From: Verrucomicrobiota bacterium
GTDB taxonomy: Bacteria > Verrucomicrobiota > Verrucomicrobiia > Opitutales > Seribacteraceae
Length of the DNA stretch: 10,025 nt
Assembly (NCBI GenBank): GCA_030830145.1
Contig: JAURNO010000503.1
Location: 1-10,025 of the forward strand
Reading direction: 5' to 3'
Under the pieces are notes generated by a model. It did no database searches. It saw only the letters and a program-made list of their open reading frames with translations, and was not told the origin of the DNA. This document shows, in pieces, positions 100 through 10,025 of the stretch (position 1 is the first letter of the stretch; every line of letters starts with the position of its first letter). Both the position numbers and the translations under genes were made by a program.

Positions 100-822
100 T
101 TGGGGAACCTATGGGGACGGGGTATCGGTGTTCGTCCCTTGGAAGGAATTTTGCCGAAAAAGGAGATTTTGAGACTTGCCGATGAAGTCAGGGAAAAAGG
201 AGGTTTTGTTTCCATGCGTAAACTCGAGGATGGATCCGAAACCCCCTACGAGCTAAATGCCACTTATTATTCAGCACTTTCCGATCCTCGGAACGAAGAG
301 CTTGGCGAATTACGTTTTCTTTGCTCACAATCGGTTGCGATGGCCATGCGCGGAATTCCCGCCGTTTACTTTCATTCTCTATACGCAAGTCCGAACGACC
401 TGAAGGGGGTTGAGGAAACCGGTCGGAATCGTACCGTTAACCGAAAAAAATGGAAATCCGAGGAACTTGAAAAAGTACTTGGGGAAAAGAGCGAGCAACC
501 CGTGAGAGTCTTCGAATGGTACGCCCGCACATTAAGAAGAAGAGCTGCATGTCCTGCTTTTCACCCGGATGCTCCTCAGGCAATTTTGGACTTCGGGTCA
601 TCGATTTTTGCGTTGGAAAGAACTTCCCTTGATGGGAACCAGATGGTTCTTTGCCTTTTTAATTTTCAAGGGAAGGAAACCAAGGTTCCCGATGCCGAAG
701 CACTGCGTGAGCTTTTTCCCCAAGGCAAGGCTCGGGATTTGATCACCGATGGAGAAATTACTTTGGAGAAAGGAAAGTTTGCTCTCCGTCCCTACCAATC
801 CCTTTGGCTGACTTCTCATTGA
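100..822 (+). CDS. GH13_18 glycoside phosphorylase, C-terminal half only (broken 5' end)
   Basis: This is the C-terminal part of a sucrose/glucosylglycerate phosphorylase-like enzyme (GH13 subfamily 18), which splits alpha-glucosides with phosphate to give glucose 1-phosphate. Clean homology starts at base 121 with GIGVRPLEGILP, the segment that follows the transition-state His-Asp pair in this family. After it come PYELNATYYSAL (residues 49-60), the last barrel strand GIPAVYFHSL (85-94), NRTVNRKKW (110-118) and a beta-sandwich tail ending LRPYQSLWL. Family members run to roughly 500-600 residues. The half with the nucleophile Asp and acid/base Glu is absent, and the expected His-Asp is replaced by unrelated residues. 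The nominal TTG start at 100 is therefore an artefact of a disrupted frame, and an in-frame TAA sits at 49-51. Exact substrate (sucrose, glucosylglycerol or glucosylglycerate) cannot be decided from this fragment. The next gene overlaps its stop codon. Confidence 0.8.
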   Translation: MGNLWGRGIGVRPLEGILPKKEILRLADEVREKGGFVSMRKLEDGSETPYELNATYYSALSDPRNEELGELRFLCSQSVAMAMRGIPAVYFHSLYASPNDLKGVEETGRNRTVNRKKWKSEELEKVLGEKSEQPVRVFEWYARTLRRRAACPAFHPDAPQAILDFGSSIFALERTSLDGNQMVLCLFNFQGKETKVPDAEALRELFPQGKARDLITDGEITLEKGKFALRPYQSLWLTSH

Positions 823-1562
823 ACCTTCTCCTTCTTGAGCAAAAGCTATCTCGTCTTTGCCTTTCGAGGAAGGATCCTCGGGCCGTTCACCTTTGCGAGG
901 TTTTGCGGGTTGAAATCGATGACGAAATCGACTTGGCTCACAAGAATGGCCCGAGAGGCAAAGGAACGGTCTCCATTCTTTCCGAAGAAACCCTGGAATT
1001 AACTATTCGCTGGTTGCCGCCACACCCTTGCGATTTGTTTCCCGTTCATCTTGTCGTTGGCTTTGCCCGTCCTCAGACTTGCAGGAAAATTCTCGAACAG
1101 GCTTCAGCCCTAGGAGTCAAGAAATTCTCCTTCTTTCAAGCTGAGAAGGGTGATCCTTCCTATCCAAAAAGTAGATTGTGGACATCCGAAGAATGGAGTG
1201 AGCGAATTGATCGTGGTGTGGAACAGGCTTTCGCAACCTTTGTTCCTTCCTGCGAAACATACGGATGCCTTCTCGATGCTCTAGGCGAGCTAGAAAACGA
1301 AGGCCTTCAGCGCATCGCCCTAGATAATTATGAGGCATCCGCTCCCTTGTCGGTCGTAAAACAAAAGGGAGAGAGTTCCATAGTCTTGGCACTGGGGCCG
1401 GAGAGAGGATGGTCCGCAAACGAACGCGAGCAATTACGCTGCAATCGGTTTGAGTTACGTCACCTCGGTAATCGAGTGCTTCGACTGGAGACTGCCGTTG
1501 TAGCTTCCCTGTCTGTTGTGTTGAAGGATTATTGGACAACTGACGTTTCCGAGGATTCGTAA
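819..1562 (+). CDS. Divergent RsmE-family (SPOUT) rRNA methyltransferase, paralogue 1
   Basis: This is an RsmE-family RNA methyltransferase, the family that methylates N3 of U1498 in 16S rRNA with S-adenosylmethionine. From a TTG start at 819 it has 247 residues. It begins MNLLLLE, as members of a divergent RsmE subgroup do, and that TTG overlaps the upstream TGA (TTGA), suggesting translational coupling. A longer TTG start at 804 is possible but adds only five residues. The N-terminal region is PUA-like (RAVHLCEVLR). The C-terminal knot has GPERGW (193-198) and LGNRVLRLETA (216-226), equivalent to GPEGG and LGxRILRxETA in canonical RsmE. The usual EQSGR segment is changed to VEQAFATF, and a DPSYPKSRLW stretch resembles the KSYW loop I recall from this subgroup. 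Its true target could be U1498 or another uridine. The 3' end overlaps antisense rsmD. Confidence 0.82.
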   Translation: MNLLLLEQKLSRLCLSRKDPRAVHLCEVLRVEIDDEIDLAHKNGPRGKGTVSILSEETLELTIRWLPPHPCDLFPVHLVVGFARPQTCRKILEQASALGVKKFSFFQAEKGDPSYPKSRLWTSEEWSERIDRGVEQAFATFVPSCETYGCLLDALGELENEGLQRIALDNYEASAPLSVVKQKGESSIVLALGPERGWSANEREQLRCNRFELRHLGNRVLRLETAVVASLSVVLKDYWTTDVSEDS

Positions 1563-2209: not shown

Positions 2210-2941
2210 ATGACCCGAAAGATCAGGGCTTTTTCACCAACGAAACTCTCCGAGGGAGAGGATGAATTGCTATTGGGGGAGGAGGAAAGCCACCATCTCG
2301 GCAAAGTTTTGAGGATACAATCCGGTTCTATGGTTGAAATACTCGACGGTAGAGGTTCACTCGCCGAGGGTGAAGTTACGAAAGTCGACCGCAAGGCAAC
2401 CCGTGTCAGAATATCGAAGCGGAAATTCGTTCCCCCGCCTAATCCGTTCATTCGAATTGGCGTCGCCATGACCAAGGCAAACCGATGGGAGGAACTTATT
2501 CGACCTTTGACCGAGATGGGGGTGGGGGGGATTATTCCACTTTTTACCGAACGAACCGAAGTGAGAATTTCAACGGACAAGGTAATGGGTAAGCTTGCAA
2601 AATGGGAGAAGTTGGCAGTCGAAGCCTGCAAGCAATCCGGTAATCCTTGGCTACCCGAAATCGAAGCCCCCATTAAGTTTGGGGAATTGTCGCCCAAAAA
2701 GGAACAGGCTTGCTTTATTGCGAGTCTCCGGTCGCGTTCGGGGAAATCTTTACCTACATTGGAGACGCCCTCTTCCGAGATCCTTCTTTTTATTGGCCCC
2801 GAAGGAGGATGGACGGAAAGAGAAGAAGAGATTGCCTCGGACAGAGGAGCCGTTTCCTTTTCCTTGGGCCCCAATGTCTTGAGATCCGAGACTGCCGCCC
2901 TCTGCGCTTTGGCAGTTGCACGAGCCGGTTTCCTTGATTAG
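2210..2941 (+). CDS. rsmE: 16S rRNA (uracil1498-N3)-methyltransferase RsmE (canonical)
   Basis: Canonical RsmE, a SPOUT-class enzyme that methylates N3 of U1498 in 16S rRNA. From ATG 2210 it has 243 residues, usual for the family. The PUA-like N-terminal domain carries EESHHLGKVLRIQSG (25-39). The knot region carries KANRWEELIRPLTEMGV (89-105), the signature EACKQSGN (138-145), GPEGGW (196-201) and LGPNVLRSETA (219-229), which form the SAM-binding trefoil knot. The longer TTG start at 2174 would add 12 residues not typical of the family. It is divergent from rsmD, and the next gene starts 13 bases after its stop, so the two may be co-transcribed. Compared with the paralogue at 819-1562 it keeps all consensus residues and is the likelier true U1498 enzyme. 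Confidence 0.94.
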   Translation: MTRKIRAFSPTKLSEGEDELLLGEEESHHLGKVLRIQSGSMVEILDGRGSLAEGEVTKVDRKATRVRISKRKFVPPPNPFIRIGVAMTKANRWEELIRPLTEMGVGGIIPLFTERTEVRISTDKVMGKLAKWEKLAVEACKQSGNPWLPEIEAPIKFGELSPKKEQACFIASLRSRSGKSLPTLETPSSEILLFIGPEGGWTEREEEIASDRGAVSFSLGPNVLRSETAALCALAVARAGFLD

Positions 2942-2954
2942 ATTCCTATCCACA

Positions 2955-4382
2955 ATGGCTGAAGAGTTATCGGGAGAACATAAGCTGAGAATCGTGTTGG
3001 AATCGATCCTTCGCGACATACCAAAAGACGAACAATGTCAGAAGTACGGTATTTCCGAAGATGAATTTCAAGGATGGCATGATCATCTGATTACCAACGG
3101 TGGGAAAATATTCGAACCGGATTTCGGCAAAACGAGGACCCGGATCCGAAAAGTTCACCAAATGAGTTCCCTGAGCAAAACGCTCTTGGTCTTGAGCCTT
3201 CTCGTGAATCTGGCTGCGATGATCTTTGTGGCGGTGTGGAAGTTATATCCTTTTGACGACCCCGAATACGGTTTGGGGACGAACCTGACCGACTCTCGGG
3301 ACTCTCCGGTCGAGGATCGCCCACTCAATATCAATGAAACGATTGCTCTACCGGTGGAGGAAGAAACCAACTTCGCTACGCAAGCTCCTGCGGTTTCACC
3401 CGAACCTCTTCCCCCGCCACGGGCCGACTTGGAGCACTTGCTGGCCAAGCCGATGCCTCTTCTCAAACCAAAACCTCTTTTGCCTGTTCCGGTTCCCGAA
3501 CCAGCACGCGAGATTTCTTTCATGGGGGGGAACTTCCAAGGTAAGCACGTGGTTTATCTTTTGGACGCGGGGACTCATGTTTTGGCGGAAAAAGAGACCA
3601 AAGAAAGTTTCAAAGCAATGAAAACCGAAATGCTCAGCTCCATTGCCAATCTTTCTCCCAATTCCTATTTCAATCTGGTTCTTTTTTGGAATTTGAGAGA
3701 GGCCCACGCTCTTGGAAAAACCATTCTTCGGGCCAACAATGAAAACAAGAAATATGCTATCGATTGGTTGACCAGCTTAGGTGAAAACGTTGATGAGCTC
3801 AAGGTTAAGCGCAGCCAGTTTTACCCAAAGGAGTTACTCTACGCCAAGCCCCTGACAGGGGTTGTAGGTCTCTGGTACGGACTCAGTACCGCCATAAGTT
3901 TCGATCCCGACCTGGTATTCGTTTCAGTGGGTAACCTGCCTGCATTCAATCTATCCGAAGTCCCCAAGAGCCACTACGAAGGCTTGGGTTTGGACCCCGG
4001 TCGAATTTCCCCGAATAGATCCGAGGGGAAGACTGGAGAGGTGAGCGACCTGATTAAGGTTACCGCCCGCAAATGGTTGATCTCCATTGAAGATGCTGCG
4101 AATCTCCCTTTGACCGAAGATTCAATCGACGACATTGCACTGCGAAGACTGGGTTTTCTCGATGGAAATTTTTCCGAATCTCAAATGATAGAAATCCCTT
4201 GGGAAAGGTCTTTCGATCATCTTATTTCAGGTATGGAAATTGGTATCGATCGGGTTCCGCAAACGCACATTTTCGTCTCCCTTCCGCCCTATGCGACTTT
4301 ACCAAGAAGCTTGATTGATCCAGCCCGCGAATTTTCGGAAAGTTCGAAAGGGAGTTTTACCCTTAATCCTAGTTTTCCCTGA
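2955..4382 (+). CDS. Membrane-anchored HTH protein with von Willebrand A-like domain, function unknown
   Basis: I do not recognise a named gene. From ATG 2955 the product has 475 residues; a TTG at 2916, inside rsmE, would add 13. Residues 5-55 resemble the helix-turn-helix of IS3-type transposase OrfA or related domesticated proteins (QKYGISEDEFQGWHDHL). A basic stretch (57-67) precedes one hydrophobic segment (TLLVLSLLVNLAAMIFVAVW, 76-95), which would place the N-terminus in the cytoplasm and the rest outside. A proline-rich linker spans about 142-184. The region 197-330 looks like a von Willebrand A fold: a first strand HVVYLLDAGTHVL, a helix, then SYFNLVLFW and later LVFVSVGNL. The metal-site DxSxS pattern is degraded to D204-A-G-T-H, so metal binding is doubtful. 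A signalling, scaffold or envelope role is possible, but no function is assigned. There is no Shine-Dalgarno of note. Confidence 0.6.
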   Translation: MAEELSGEHKLRIVLESILRDIPKDEQCQKYGISEDEFQGWHDHLITNGGKIFEPDFGKTRTRIRKVHQMSSLSKTLLVLSLLVNLAAMIFVAVWKLYPFDDPEYGLGTNLTDSRDSPVEDRPLNINETIALPVEEETNFATQAPAVSPEPLPPPRADLEHLLAKPMPLLKPKPLLPVPVPEPAREISFMGGNFQGKHVVYLLDAGTHVLAEKETKESFKAMKTEMLSSIANLSPNSYFNLVLFWNLREAHALGKTILRANNENKKYAIDWLTSLGENVDELKVKRSQFYPKELLYAKPLTGVVGLWYGLSTAISFDPDLVFVSVGNLPAFNLSEVPKSHYEGLGLDPGRISPNRSEGKTGEVSDLIKVTARKWLISIEDAANLPLTEDSIDDIALRRLGFLDGNFSESQMIEIPWERSFDHLISGMEIGIDRVPQTHIFVSLPPYATLPRSLIDPAREFSESSKGSFTLNPSFP

Positions 4383-4457: not shown

Positions 4458-6635
4458 ATGAGAATGAGTGCCACTTTTTTTAGGTATGTTCAAAAATCAT
4501 TTGGGATTGCTTTGCTTTTCCTTTTGACGCTTGCTCAATCGGTCTTGGGACAAACCCCAGATCCCGATGAATTGATATCCGTGCGTCTGTTTTCGGATGC
4601 GAGTACGATCAAGCGAGGTGACTCGGTTTGGTTAGGGGTCGAGATCGAGATCGAGAAAGATTGGCACATTTATTGGAAGACCTCTGGAGAGACAGGCTTG
4701 CCGACGGAAATCGAGTGGACGGTTTCCTTAGATGCCAAGATTGAGCCTACCCTTTACCCTACTCCCTATTTTTACGAATACCAGGGTTCCGCCAGTTATG
4801 CTTACAAAGAAAAGATCTTATTACTTACCAAGTTAAACCTCCCGGTTGAAGGTGAGATTCCTGGAGGGGTTATCTCGGTTCAATGCGACCTTTCCGCACT
4901 TGTTTGCAATGAGTTCAATTGTCTTCCCTATGGCAAGGAATTGAGCCTTGAATTGCCGATCGGTGTAAAAACAGTTTTGGATTCCAAGTTCGTGGAAAAG
5001 ATTTCCGCTGCCGAAAAAAAACACCCGGTCGCAATGCCCTCGGGGTCGAATGTTTCCGCTCTTGCAAAAGGTGAATCGGTGGGGATTGAATGGCAGGACC
5101 AAGACCTTGGGAAACTGGAGGTCGAGCAATTTGATTTTTTTGCTCAGGGAGATTTCTTCGATCATTCCTTTCGCCCAAAATTCGAAATAACCGAAGACGG
5201 TTACCTGTTCGCATCCCTCAAAAAATCGGATGCCATGGAAGGCTTTCCTGAGTCGGTTCGCGGAGTCTTGTCCCATCCTGATCTCGAGCGTGCTTGGTTG
5301 GTCAATTTACAGATCGACCAAGCTGTTTATGGAAAGGCCAGTGAAACACTGAAGGGTGCTTCCCTTGACACCGTGGAAGAAACCCGTGCCTCGGAGAGTG
5401 GACTGTCTTTTCTTTGGACGCTCTTGGGTATGGTATTGGTTGCCTTTGCCGTTTGGACATATGGGAGGACCAATCAACCGGTCAACTCTGCCGTACAGAG
5501 AACTAGAGGTAAGGTGCTGACCTTGGCTTTTCTTGGTGCGGGGGTCTGGTTAGGATACCCCAAAGAGGAGGATGATAGAGGATTGAACTGGCAAAATTGG
5601 TCGCCTGAAAGGCAGGAATCCTTACTAGCGGAGGGGAGGGCGGTTTACGTCGATTACACAGCCAAATGGTGTCAGTCCTGCCAGTTTAACAAGCGAATTT
5701 ACGAGTCTGAAGAGGTGATCGCTCAATTCGAGGATTTGGGCATCGTACCCTTGAAGGCGGATTGGACGAAGCGGGGACCCACCATTCTCCAATCACTCGA
5801 GTCCTTCAAACGCAAAGGTGTCCCTCTCAATGTTTATTATCCACCGTCTTCGGGGCAGGTGAACAAATCCGAACCCATTTTATTCAGCGAAGTTTTGACT
5901 GAGGATTCCGTCTTGACCGTTCTAAAAACCGGCAAGCCCTATTTGACTCCGGAATCGGGAGGCTTTGCGAGCATGATCGGCTTTGCATTCCTTGGCGGTC
6001 TGATTCTCAATTTAATGCCCTGTGTGTTTCCCGTCCTCGGATTGAAGATCATGTCTTTTGTCAAGCAAGCCGGTGAGGAGAAAAGCAAAATTTCCCGTCA
6101 CGGAGTGGTCTTTACCTGTGGTGTGGTTCTTTCCTTCTGGGTCTTGGTCGGGGTCTTGTTTGCCTTGAGGGAGGCATTGGGAGAAGACTTGGGTTGGGGG
6201 TTTCAGCTCCAGGAACCGGTATTTGTCTTTTTCTTGGCCGTCTTCCTTCTCATCTTTGCCATGAGTTTGAGCGGGGTTTTTGAAATCGGACTTTCGATGA
6301 TCGGCGTTGGCTCGAAACTTTCTCAAAAATCAGGCTATGCGGGCTCTTTTTTCTCCGGTGTTCTAGCCACCGTGGTGGCCACCCCTTGCATGGCTCCTTT
6401 TCTAGGAGTAGCCGTAGGTGCCGCCCTCACGATGGACCTGTTTCCGGCCTTTGTCATCTTCACAAGCGTCGCCATCGGTCTTTCCTTTCCCTATCTTGTT
6501 CTCTCGGTCTTTCCTGGTTGGATAAGCAAGTTACCCAAGCCCGGGGCATGGATGGACACATTCAAACAGGCAATGGCTTTTCCATTGTACGCAACCGTAG
6601 TTTGGTTGCTTTGGACTTTGGCGAGCCTCCTTTAG
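4458..6635 (+). CDS. dsbD: DsbD/ScsB-type thiol-disulfide transporter with permuted domain order
   Basis: This inner-membrane protein moves reducing equivalents from cytoplasmic thioredoxin to periplasmic substrates. A signal peptide (about 1-31, ending SVLG) leads into a periplasmic ScsB-type alpha domain (35-170) with WHIYWKTSGETGLPTEIEW (69-87) and C143/C150/C155 (CNEFNC). A second beta-rich part follows (about 205-290). Next come two helices (317-335 and 353-366), then a thioredoxin domain (375-490) with WCQSC (404-408) preceded by NWSPERQ. The CcdA-like core comes last (503-725) with LMPCVFP (C522) and ATPCMAP (C644). In known DsbD/ScsB proteins the core precedes the last two helices and thioredoxin ends the protein, so the order here is permuted. 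The frame is uninterrupted. A basic loop (336-352) between the first two helices agrees with a cytoplasmic position, leaving thioredoxin periplasmic. An ATG at 4464 is an alternative start. No known partner gene is adjacent. Confidence 0.9.
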   Translation: MRMSATFFRYVQKSFGIALLFLLTLAQSVLGQTPDPDELISVRLFSDASTIKRGDSVWLGVEIEIEKDWHIYWKTSGETGLPTEIEWTVSLDAKIEPTLYPTPYFYEYQGSASYAYKEKILLLTKLNLPVEGEIPGGVISVQCDLSALVCNEFNCLPYGKELSLELPIGVKTVLDSKFVEKISAAEKKHPVAMPSGSNVSALAKGESVGIEWQDQDLGKLEVEQFDFFAQGDFFDHSFRPKFEITEDGYLFASLKKSDAMEGFPESVRGVLSHPDLERAWLVNLQIDQAVYGKASETLKGASLDTVEETRASESGLSFLWTLLGMVLVAFAVWTYGRTNQPVNSAVQRTRGKVLTLAFLGAGVWLGYPKEEDDRGLNWQNWSPERQESLLAEGRAVYVDYTAKWCQSCQFNKRIYESEEVIAQFEDLGIVPLKADWTKRGPTILQSLESFKRKGVPLNVYYPPSSGQVNKSEPILFSEVLTEDSVLTVLKTGKPYLTPESGGFASMIGFAFLGGLILNLMPCVFPVLGLKIMSFVKQAGEEKSKISRHGVVFTCGVVLSFWVLVGVLFALREALGEDLGWGFQLQEPVFVFFLAVFLLIFAMSLSGVFEIGLSMIGVGSKLSQKSGYAGSFFSGVLATVVATPCMAPFLGVAVGAALTMDLFPAFVIFTSVAIGLSFPYLVLSVFPGWISKLPKPGAWMDTFKQAMAFPLYATVVWLLWTLASLL

Positions 6636-6674: not shown

Positions 6675-8481
<1,807 letters not shown>

Positions 8482-8658
8482 GGGCTTGGTTTTGTAGTTG
8501 GAGAGAAAATTTTTCATTGAACTGATTGTCTAGTATGCAGGATTCAAGCCATGAGAGATATTTGTTATAATAATGAACATAAATAATCCATGTGGGTGCC
8601 ATGGTTACTCTCTTTTATACACTCAATTCAAGGGACTGCCTAAAATTAAAGCACAAAA
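8482..8658 (-). promoter_or_regulatory. amt1 upstream region with dyad and weak sigma-54-like site
   Basis: The AT-rich stretch before amt1 must hold its promoter, since a terminator lies just upstream. On the minus strand TGGCAC (8601-8596) is a perfect -24-type element, but the -12 half (TGGAT, 8590-8586) lacks the conserved GC, so the sigma-54 match is weak. The same place holds an exact dyad CCATG-N7-CATGG (8588-8604), a possible operator. A TATAAA occurs upstream of this but has no well-spaced -35 partner. Confidence 0.3.
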
Positions 8659-8684
8659 AAAGGCCCGGTAATCACCGGGCCTTT
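8659..8684 (-). terminator. Strong rho-independent terminator after glnK2
   Basis: AAAGGCCCGGT (8659-8669) pairs perfectly with ACCGGGCCTTT (8674-8684) around a four-base loop, an 11-bp stem. On the minus strand the stem is followed by a run of Ts (complement of 8655-8661), a classic intrinsic terminator for amt2-glnK2. The plus strand has a T-rich CTTTCTTTAT, so it may work both ways. It separates the two amt-glnK modules. Confidence 0.93.
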
Positions 8685-8691
8685 CTTTATG

Positions 8692-8715
8692 CAAGCGAAT
8701 GAATTGGTTCGCTTG
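8692..8715 (-). repeat. Second inverted repeat 3' of glnK2
   Basis: CAAGCGAA (8692-8699) and TTCGCTTG (8708-8715) are a perfect 8-bp inverted repeat with an 8-base loop. It lies 17 bases beyond the glnK2 stop and 7 bases before the strong terminator. It has no U-tract of its own, so it may be a 3'-end stabiliser or help the terminator fold. Confidence 0.55.
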
Positions 8716-8732
8716 ACTTTATTGGAAGAGCG

Positions 8733-9086
<354 letters not shown>

Positions 9087-9116
9087 TTATTGTTTAGTAA
9101 GGTTGGGAAGCGAACT

Positions 9117-10025
9117 TTATGAAGTGTATGCTTCCTGACCGTGCTCTGAAATGTCAAGACCGCGTTCTTCCTCCTCTTCACTGACTCGTACTCCGATAGT
9201 TGATTTCAGAATGAGTGCCAAGGCATAGGAGAATACGAATGCAAACAAACTTACGCAAACGATACCAATTATTTGACCCGTTAGGCTAGCCCCACCAAAG
9301 AAGGCGACAGCTAGAGTTCCCCAAATACCGCATATACCGTGAACTGAAATGGCTCCAACGGGATCGTCGATCTTGGCCTTGTCGAAGGCGATGATAGAGA
9401 AAACAACTATAGCTCCTGCAATTGCGCCAGTGACAATAGACATAGCTGGTGAAATCGCATCCGCACCAGCAGTAATTCCTACCAATCCAGCCAGAAATCC
9501 GTTCAAAGCCATCGATAAATCAGGCTTTTTGATGACGAAAGTAGAGACAAGCATAGAAGCTAGTGCTCCTGCACAAGCGGCAAGTGCGGTAGTGACGCAA
9601 ACTCTCGAAATTAATTCGGAATCTGCACTCAAGACGGATCCGCCATTGAAACCAAACCAACCTAAGAAGAGTAGAAATACTCCGATTGCAGCCAAAGGCA
9701 TGCTATGACCGACGATGGGTTTGATTCCGCTTTCGGTGTATTTGCCTTTTCGGGGTCCGAGAACCATTACGAAGGCCAACGCGGCAAAACCTCCAAAAGC
9801 ATGGACAACCGTCGAGCCAGCGAAGTCGTAGAACGCATTGGAATAACTGTCCGCTTCTGCTCCCGCCTCGAGGGCTGCGGCTGCGATCACATTTCCGTCA
9901 GCATCGAGAGCATCACCAAGAGTGGTCAGGAAACCACCACCCCAGTGCCAAGAGCCTGCAACAGTGTAACCAATGGCTACAAGAACAGTGGCGTGAACCA
10001 AGAACGCGGAAAGCTTTACTCTTTC
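9117..10025 (-). CDS. amt: Ammonium transporter AmtB (copy 2), N-terminus beyond window
   Basis: This is the C-terminal 302 residues of an Amt-family ammonium channel, open to the window edge, so the start and first helices lie outside. The visible part begins ERVKLSAFLVHA, the usual segment after helix 4-5. It then has HWGGGFL, the first pore histidine in FAGSTVVHAFGG (codon at 9801-9803), GWFGFNGGSV, and the second in GAISVHGICGIWG (codon at 9339-9341). The cytoplasmic tail VSEEEEERGLDISEHG (PII-binding) is followed by QEAYTS. An extra Ala/Glu-rich periplasmic loop of about 33 residues separates HWGGGFL from the first pore histidine. The channel differs clearly from copy 1 (GPRKGKY against GRRQGYP; VVHAFGG against VVHATAG), so the two channels did not arise by a recent duplication. 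It is followed 45 bases later by glnK copy 2. Confidence 0.96.
   Translation of the reverse strand, partial: ERVKLSAFLVHATVLVAIGYTVAGSWHWGGGFLTTLGDALDADGNVIAAAALEAGAEADSYSNAFYDFAGSTVVHAFGGFAALAFVMVLGPRKGKYTESGIKPIVGHSMPLAAIGVFLLFLGWFGFNGGSVLSADSELISRVCVTTALAACAGALASMLVSTFVIKKPDLSMALNGFLAGLVGITAGADAISPAMSIVTGAIAGAIVVFSIIAFDKAKIDDPVGAISVHGICGIWGTLAVAFFGGASLTGQIIGIVCVSLFAFVFSYALALILKSTIGVRVSEEEEERGLDISEHGQEAYTS

What the first reader, a model, noticed from the sequence alone, without database searches (positions are those of the whole stretch)
4458..6635. DsbD/ScsB-like protein with its membrane core and thioredoxin half swapped
Known DsbD/ScsB proteins run alpha domain, helices 1-6 (with both core cysteines), helices 7-8, then C-terminal thioredoxin. 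Here the order is alpha, two helices with the sequence character of helices 7-8 (FLWTLLGMVLVAFAVWTYGR, then a short second helix), NWSPER-thioredoxin with WCQSC, and then the six-helix core, with the protein ending at VVWLLWTLASLL where helix 7 would normally follow. All cysteine pairs are present and the frame is intact. Because an even number of helices moved, every domain keeps its side of the membrane, so the permuted protein should still be workable. Thioredoxin is tethered between membrane segments rather than hanging free at the end, which could alter electron hand-over.
Basis: partly seen in the sequence, partly recalled or inferred. Interest (0 to 1): 0.75.

Follow-up and report, generated by a model that had tools for sequence, protein, structure and literature searches.

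The report
Membrane electron carrier with rotated domains
In a family of uncultured bacteria, a DsbD/ScsB-type protein, whose known relatives carry electrons across the inner membrane, has its modules joined in a rotated order, and relatives show both other rotations and a half-way form, so it looks like a traceable natural case of circular permutation in a membrane protein.

Summary
Helices 315-338 and 345-366 are homologous to canonical TM7-8. It is no assembly error: 120 of 121 sequences examined (query plus 120 best hits) have Trx before both core cysteines; the other is a fragment. Beyond the finding: behind alpha, the modules TM1-6, TM7-8 and Trx occur in all three cyclic orders in Verrucomicrobiota. 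The third order (Trx, TM1-6, TM7-8) occurs in a sister genus of the window's family, beside the same glnK-amtB genes, and in another family of the order. A few Akkermansia proteins carry a duplicated form (TM5-8 remnant, Trx, TM1-8), as expected half-way through duplication and deletion. One origin for both rotated orders is rejected (p-AU 0.001). The six redox cysteines are invariant in 32 rows and helix counts stay even, so I infer the usual relay: cytoplasmic thioredoxin, core, Trx domain, alpha. Activity and TM7-8 packing were not shown. The open-access papers searched describe no permuted DsbD/ScsB; VKOR/DsbB is the nearest precedent.

The parts
4458..6635 (+). Whole gene, 725 aa, rotated DsbD/ScsB-type protein (stop codon included)
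   Evidence: single DsbD_TM match in the own genome, which is 74.8% complete
4458..4550 (+). Signal-peptide-like N-terminus, residues 1-31
   Evidence: Sequence; helix 4-29 in the model; assigned by eye, no signal-peptide program was run
4557..5324 (+). ScsB-like alpha region, residues 34-289, redox pair C150/C155 (4905-4907, 4920-4922)
5400..5471 (+). Helix homologous to canonical TM7, residues 315-338
   Evidence: Helix in models; TM78 HMM and retained W-x-Y-G-R/K motif
5490..5555 (+). Helix homologous to canonical TM8, residues 345-366
   Evidence: Same as TM7
5580..5936 (+). Thioredoxin (gamma) domain, residues 375-493, WCQSC with C405/C408 at 5670-5681
5964..6629 (+). Six-helix CcdA-like core TM1-6, residues 503-724, C522 (6021-6023) and C644 (6387-6389); protein ends right after TM6
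   Evidence: DsbD_TM 507-718; CcdA 5vkv, 222 columns, probability 1.00 but E 0.015; helices

Best explanation
This is a working, circularly permuted DsbD/ScsB-type transmembrane electron carrier. Behind a fixed N-terminal alpha domain the cassette TM1-6, TM7-8, Trx has been rotated to TM7-8, Trx, TM1-6. The rotation most likely arose inside the gene by tandem duplication of the cassette followed by loss of the first TM1-6 and the last TM7-8-Trx. The sister order in the same family (Trx, TM1-6, TM7-8) would come from the same kind of event, either through a shared duplicated ancestor or stepwise; which of the two is open. Since 2 and 6 helices are both even, alpha, Trx and the C-terminus should all stay periplasmic. 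Inferred function, unchanged from DsbD/ScsB: electrons pass from cytoplasmic thioredoxin to the C522/C644 pair of the core, to C405/C408 of the tethered Trx, to C150/C155 of alpha and on to periplasmic substrates. Shown here: order, homology of every module, conservation, congruent module trees, same-locus orthology with the sister order, recurrence, a duplicated form elsewhere. Inferred: topology, packing of TM7-8 on the core, electron route, route of the rearrangement in this family.
For: The window's order is found in 29 of 29 further loci returned by the family scan (25 with alpha, 4 without; these are its best matches, so the two third-order genes were not among them). DsbD_TM occurs exactly once in each of 33 of 42 family genomes; the 9 without a match are all under 90% complete. 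dN/dS 0.03-0.13 for alpha, TM78, Trx and TM16 against L112 and L113. Trees of TM16, Trx and alpha made separately each put the window type together with the family's third-order genes L141/L142 (SH-aLRT 98, 95, 85); the TM16+Trx tree gives 100/99. A glnK/amtB array lies on the 3' side in 11 of 11 loci compared, two third-order ones included. All three rotations found. Akkermansia P0122: residues 318-552 align to canonical P0142 493-741 (41%), 552-855 to 311-615, 4-304 to 1-301, that is, a duplicated cassette with partial deletion. Holding window-type and third-order genes as one clade is rejected, p-AU 0.00118. Loops 528-548 (5 K/R) and 684-704 (3 K/R) lie where cytoplasmic loops are expected, acidic 572-587 (0 K/R, 4 D/E) on the other side.
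Against: No activity data. TM7-8 packing on the core was not seen: the mean-field coupling analysis on 494 sequences (Neff 127) shows no excess of TM78-TM16 pairs (14 of the top 100, 16.5 expected), though it shows none within TM16 either, so it lacks power. The full-length model has pTM only 0.50. The TM7-8 loop as delimited (338-349) holds one K/R only, weak support for topology. Window-type genes are one clade at 99/94 on TM16+Trx but 88/85 with alpha and TM78 added, and L141/L142 joined with an early branch of the window type is not rejected (p 0.253); the alpha tree alone does not keep them apart. So the direction between the two orders in this family is open. The duplicated form is known from the Akkermansia relatives only, not from this family. 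dN/dS was higher in some pairs (alpha 0.22 against L123, second half of the alpha region 0.40 against L120) and not estimable in others.
Confidence: 0.83

Rival explanations
1. Assembly or binning error: the true gene has the standard order and the contig joined pieces wrongly.
For: The source genome is fragmented (540 contigs, 74.8% complete).
Against: 24 of 42 family genomes, window included, match the whole rotated model in one stretch, and 118 of 121 sequences examined show the full order. The junction regions align across 32 relatives.
Confidence: 0.01
2. Not a permutation but a new fusion: a CcdA-like protein and a membrane-anchored thioredoxin with two unrelated helices were fused behind an alpha domain.
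For: CcdA exists as a stand-alone core protein (PMC4460558, passages); a few relatives lack alpha in the same frame (L137-L140).
Against: The two helices are recognised by homology as TM7-8 in canonical proteins (up to 56 bits) and keep the W-x-[YFWL]-G-[RK] motif (19 of 19 window-type rows, 13 of 13 third-order rows, 39 of the 47 canonical rows in which the segment was found, of 52). Alpha, Trx and TM16 trees agree on the family grouping.
Confidence: 0.05
3. Stepwise rotation: canonical to Trx-TM1-6-TM7-8 (as in the sister genus) and only then to TM7-8-Trx-TM1-6, each step moving the last module to the position behind alpha. This is a variant of the best explanation, about the route.
For: The third order occurs in the same family and locus and is sister to the window type in the best trees.
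Against: A duplicated ancestor with differential loss explains both orders at once and has a visible counterpart in Akkermansia. Grouping L141/L142 with an early branch of the window type is not rejected.
Confidence: 0.35
4. The rotated proteins have lost or changed the transfer function, for example Trx held away from the core or alpha dispensable.
For: Some members lack alpha in the same frame (L137-L140) or lack the second half of the alpha region (P0098, P0105, P0112, P0117).
Against: All six cysteines invariant in 32 of 32; low dN/dS in the two closest pairs; the only DsbD_TM protein found in each of 33 genomes with a match.
Confidence: 0.1

Closest known systems
ScsB class of the DsbD family (alpha-beta-gamma membrane electron transporters)
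   Different: Order of the modules behind alpha is rotated; the chain ends after TM6 instead of after thioredoxin
E. coli DsbD
   Different: Order; larger alpha region; below the curated cut-off of the NCBIfam DsbD model (85.6 against 330 bits)
CcdA
   Same: Six-helix core, Foldseek match to 5vkv over 222 columns, E 0.015
   Different: CcdA is the core alone, without alpha and Trx (PMC4460558, passages)
VKOR/DsbB pair (circular permutation of a four-helix disulfide-relay membrane enzyme; PMC4555120, passages read)
   Same: Membrane thiol-redox protein with helices threaded in cyclically permuted order; duplication/deletion proposed
   Different: There two distant families; here one gene family, in part at one locus, with all three rotations and a duplicated form alive. 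The modules also include a soluble thioredoxin domain

Membership tests
DsbD/ScsB family | Alpha domain of DsbD_N type with a redox cysteine pair | tested here: met
DsbD/ScsB family | CcdA-like six-helix core with a cysteine in TM1 and TM4 | tested here: met
   DsbD_TM 64.9 bits against cut-off 27.1; C522 and C644 invariant; 5vkv match, E 0.015
DsbD/ScsB family | Gamma thioredoxin domain with CxxC | tested here: met
DsbD/ScsB family | Eight helices, with TM7-8 homologous to family members | tested here: met
   TM78 HMM hits canonical proteins at up to 56 bits; helices
DsbD/ScsB family | Order alpha - TM1-8 - gamma | tested here: not met
   Order is alpha - TM7-8 - gamma - TM1-6
NCBIfam NF001419 (protein-disulfide reductase DsbD) | Score over the curated cut-off | tested here: not met
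   85.6 bits against 330
DsbD/ScsB family | Electron transfer from cytoplasmic thioredoxin to periplasmic substrates | not testable with these tools
   Needs biochemistry or complementation
Circular permutation | All modules homologous to the unpermuted protein and in a cyclically rotated order | tested here: met
Circular permutation | Former ends joined (Trx C-end to TM1) and a new end opened (after TM6) | tested here: met
   Junction views
Circular permutation | Same three-dimensional arrangement as the unpermuted protein | tested here: inconclusive
   414-aa segment model has pTM 0.72, but no coordinates are returned, and the relevant matches listed cover single domains only

The most novel reading that the evidence does not exclude
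DsbD/ScsB is a rotation-tolerant membrane machine. In Verrucomicrobiota its three-module cassette has been circularly permuted at least three times independently (window's family, another family of the same order, an Akkermansia clade), all three cyclic orders are alive, two of them as orthologues at one locus in one family, and a duplication-bearing intermediate form survives. It would be a stepwise-visible natural circular permutation series in a polytopic membrane protein.
Probability: 0.72. Interest if true: 0.68.

Novelty: new variant of a known kind. Interest (0 to 1): 0.6.

Why it matters
To my knowledge natural circular permutation of helical membrane proteins has few described cases; VKOR/DsbB is an ancient one inferred from structures (PMC4555120, passages). 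Here the event can be placed on a tree and at one locus, with sister orders and a duplicated form elsewhere, so insertion and folding of permuted membrane proteins and the duplication-deletion route become directly testable. It also suggests that the order of attachment in DsbD/ScsB is not what makes the electron relay work. In the protein listing the few names given go by content, such as 'protein-disulfide reductase DsbD family protein' or 'thioredoxin family protein', and do not tell the order.

Tried and rejected
Assembly error: rejected on independent genomes. New fusion with unrelated helices: judged unlikely on TM78 homology and tree agreement. A second, canonical DsbD in the own genome: none found, nor in the family genomes. 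Co-variation between TM7-8 and TM1-6 as proof of packing: no excess, underpowered. Structure search for TM7-8: the relevant listed rows cover alpha, Trx and CcdA; the rest was barely tested. Suspected half-way forms in the other family (matches starting at profile position 329-346): read in full, they are plain third-order proteins. Eight genomes of genus code g38 (no names given) with several matches, suspected to be rotated: in 8 of 8 the listed pieces have the core before TM78/Trx, one of them (G069) at a contig start with its front part on another contig. Literature: the searches listed no paper that I recognised, from titles and abstract starts, as describing a permuted DsbD/ScsB; the library is open-access only, and two papers asked for by id, on ScsB (2012) and on domain fusion in DsbD (2002), are not held. 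Rotated forms in other phyla: not searched genome-wide. Among the 80 best loci, those titled with other phyla showed alpha and core with Trx, where found, behind the core; could not be run.

Full report

ARE THE FIRST TWO HELICES TM7-8? Yes by homology. An HMM from columns 312-372 of the window-type alignment finds, in canonical homologues, the stretch between TM6 and thioredoxin, for example L014 534-587 at 56 bits. In 13 of 74 canonical-like loci of the named collection no such match was found. The motif W-x-[YFWL]-G-[RK] is kept in 19 of 19 window-type rows, 13 of 13 third-order rows, 39 of the 47 canonical rows in which the segment was found (52 rows in all) and 4 of 4 Akkermansia rotated rows.

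NOT AN ARTEFACT. Of 7776 homologues the 120 best were listed. With the query, 120 of 121 have the thioredoxin WCxxC before both core cysteines; the other, P0024, is a fragment. By module HMMs 118 of 121 are alpha-TM78-Trx-TM16, 2 lack alpha, 1 lacks the core. In the window's GTDB family (42 genomes, codes without names), 24 genomes, window included, match the whole model in one stretch; 2 more match from 287-296 on, with alpha as a separate match in the same frame; 4 have TM78-Trx-TM16 without alpha in the frame; 1 is broken by stops; 2 have the third order; the other 9 have alpha-like pieces or nothing. DsbD_TM occurs once in each of 33 of 42 genomes, and in 14 of 14 of those at least 90% complete and at most 5% contaminated. 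dN/dS against L112 and L113 is 0.03-0.13 for alpha, TM78, Trx and TM16; against the more distant L120 and L123 several dS values were saturated, and those that could be computed were 0.08 (TM16), 0.22 (alpha) and 0.40 (second half of the alpha region).

ALL THREE ROTATIONS. Reading the gene in 29 loci from a phylum-wide scan (L003-L031, the best matches after the window) gives 25 canonical and 4 with alpha-Trx-TM16-TM78. Reading the 80 loci returned from the named genome collection gives 74 canonical-like (core before Trx in 70; no Trx found in the frame in 4), 1 of the window type (L032, Opitutia bacterium UBA7876), 4 of the third order and 1 duplicated form (L069). The 120 listed relatives of a third-order protein from family f4 are all third order. 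In the order-wide scan (372 genomes, 310 with a match), single-stretch Trx-TM16 matches appear in 33 genomes of the window's family and in 58 of one other family, f4, counted by me from the printed rows; the rows were cut off, so more may exist. Twenty stretches, mostly from that scan, were read: 17 are third order (one of them split into two frames), 1 is the window type without alpha, 1 is the window type split into two frames, and 1 (L188) is a second copy of a third-order locus already held. Family f4 also holds canonical genes (L146, L147).

SAME LOCUS, DIFFERENT ORDER. In the window and ten longer loci of the family, the glnK/amtB array lies on the 3' side of the gene in 11 of 11 (in L199 with a 142-aa frame between); two of these (L199, L200) are third-order genes. 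RsmE/RsmD-like genes and the 488-aa frame stand on the 5' side in the 9 window-type loci and in neither third-order locus. Of 86 loci searched with the window's genes, only L032, L141 and L142, all of this family, have glnK/amtB beside it, though many loci have short flanks. The two rotations are therefore most likely orthologues in place.

TREE. On TM16+Trx (88 rows chosen by me, 329 columns) the window type is one clade (99/94), sister to the family's third-order genes L141/L142 (joint 100/99); the other third-order genes lie far off with canonical relatives, and the Akkermansia form lies with canonical relatives (100/98); the four order labels need 5 changes, shuffled mean 32.8. Such counts cannot tell gain from loss. 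Holding window type and all third-order genes as one clade is rejected, p-AU 0.00118; the f4 third-order genes alone may have one origin, p 0.234. Separate trees of TM16, Trx and alpha all recover window type plus L141/L142 (98, 95, 85), so the modules travelled together; the alpha tree does not keep the window type apart from L141/L142. With all four modules (35 rows) the window type is a clade at 88/85, and L141/L142 grouped with its early branch is not rejected, p 0.253. So I count at least three independent rotations, the Akkermansia one resting on branch support and not on the AU test, with the direction inside this family open.

A HALF-WAY FORM. In Akkermansia P0122 (the frame of L069; P0124 is the same protein, P0125-P0128 are alike, P0134 is apparently a cut-off copy, and P0129 lacks a detectable first TM78), residues 318-552 align to 493-741 of the canonical relative P0142, and 552-855 to 311-615. 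After alpha it thus carries what by eye is a remnant of TM5-6, then TM7-8 (HMM match of 12 bits only) and Trx, and then a whole TM1-8. That is what a tandem duplication with partial deletion would leave behind. Loss of the front TM7-8 from such a form gives the third order; loss of the rear TM7-8 gives the window's order.

HOW IT LIKELY WORKS. Two helices, then six: thioredoxin and both ends should stay periplasmic. The loops 528-548 and 684-704 (5 and 3 K/R) and the acidic loop 572-587 fit; the TM7-8 loop as delimited has one K/R. The relay cytoplasmic thioredoxin, core, gamma, alpha, as described for DsbD (PMC4460558, passages), needs no change. Kept cysteines, purifying selection and the lack of a second copy support function; nothing here measures it.

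LIMITS. TM7-8 packing was not seen; the coupling analysis (494 sequences, Neff 127) had no excess of TM78-TM16 pairs and too little power. Other phyla were not scanned for rotated forms (searches failed). The literature search covers open-access papers only.

COMPARED WITH WHAT IS KNOWN. It should work like ScsB/DsbD and belongs to the family by the module tests, but not by module order, and it is below the NCBIfam DsbD cut-off. Circular permutation itself is known, with VKOR/DsbB as the membrane precedent, which its authors call the first report relating distant helical membrane proteins in this way (PMC4555120, passages). A multi-rotation series within one gene family of membrane proteins was not found in the searches named under Tried and rejected.

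Noticed in passing
window 804-1562 + and 2174-2941 +: Two RsmE-like rRNA methyltransferase genes (both PF04452) flank an RsmD-like gene (1529-2113 -, PF03602); two copies recur in 8 of 9 window-type loci compared, window included. Why two are kept is unclear.
   Followed up: partly
window 6675-10001 -: Two glnK-amtB pairs in tandem (P-II, ammonium transporter; the second amtB is cut by the window end); such genes lie next to the DsbD gene in both rotations.
   Followed up: partly
window 2916-4382 +: 488-aa frame directly upstream, by eye with one hydrophobic stretch near residue 95, no Pfam match; found in 9 of 11 family loci compared, window included.
   Followed up: no
L143 from 1733 +, L144 from 1699 +, L145 from 1874 on the minus strand: Separate alpha-only proteins of about 300 aa in genomes of the family; in genus g200 the main gene lacks alpha in its frame (L137-L140), so a free alpha may serve it.
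   Followed up: no
P0098, P0105, P0112, P0117 (609-610 aa): A subgroup lacks the second half of the alpha region while keeping all redox cysteines.
   Followed up: no
L190 (G394) and L189 (G618): Rotated genes split into two frames, between TM78 and Trx (L190) and inside Trx (L189); real splits or sequencing errors.
   Followed up: no
P0130-P0133 and others among the 120 hits; L074, L086, L087, L090, L093, L106-L108: Canonical-order relatives with two alpha domains in tandem: 18 of 120 hits and 8 of 80 loci.
   Followed up: no
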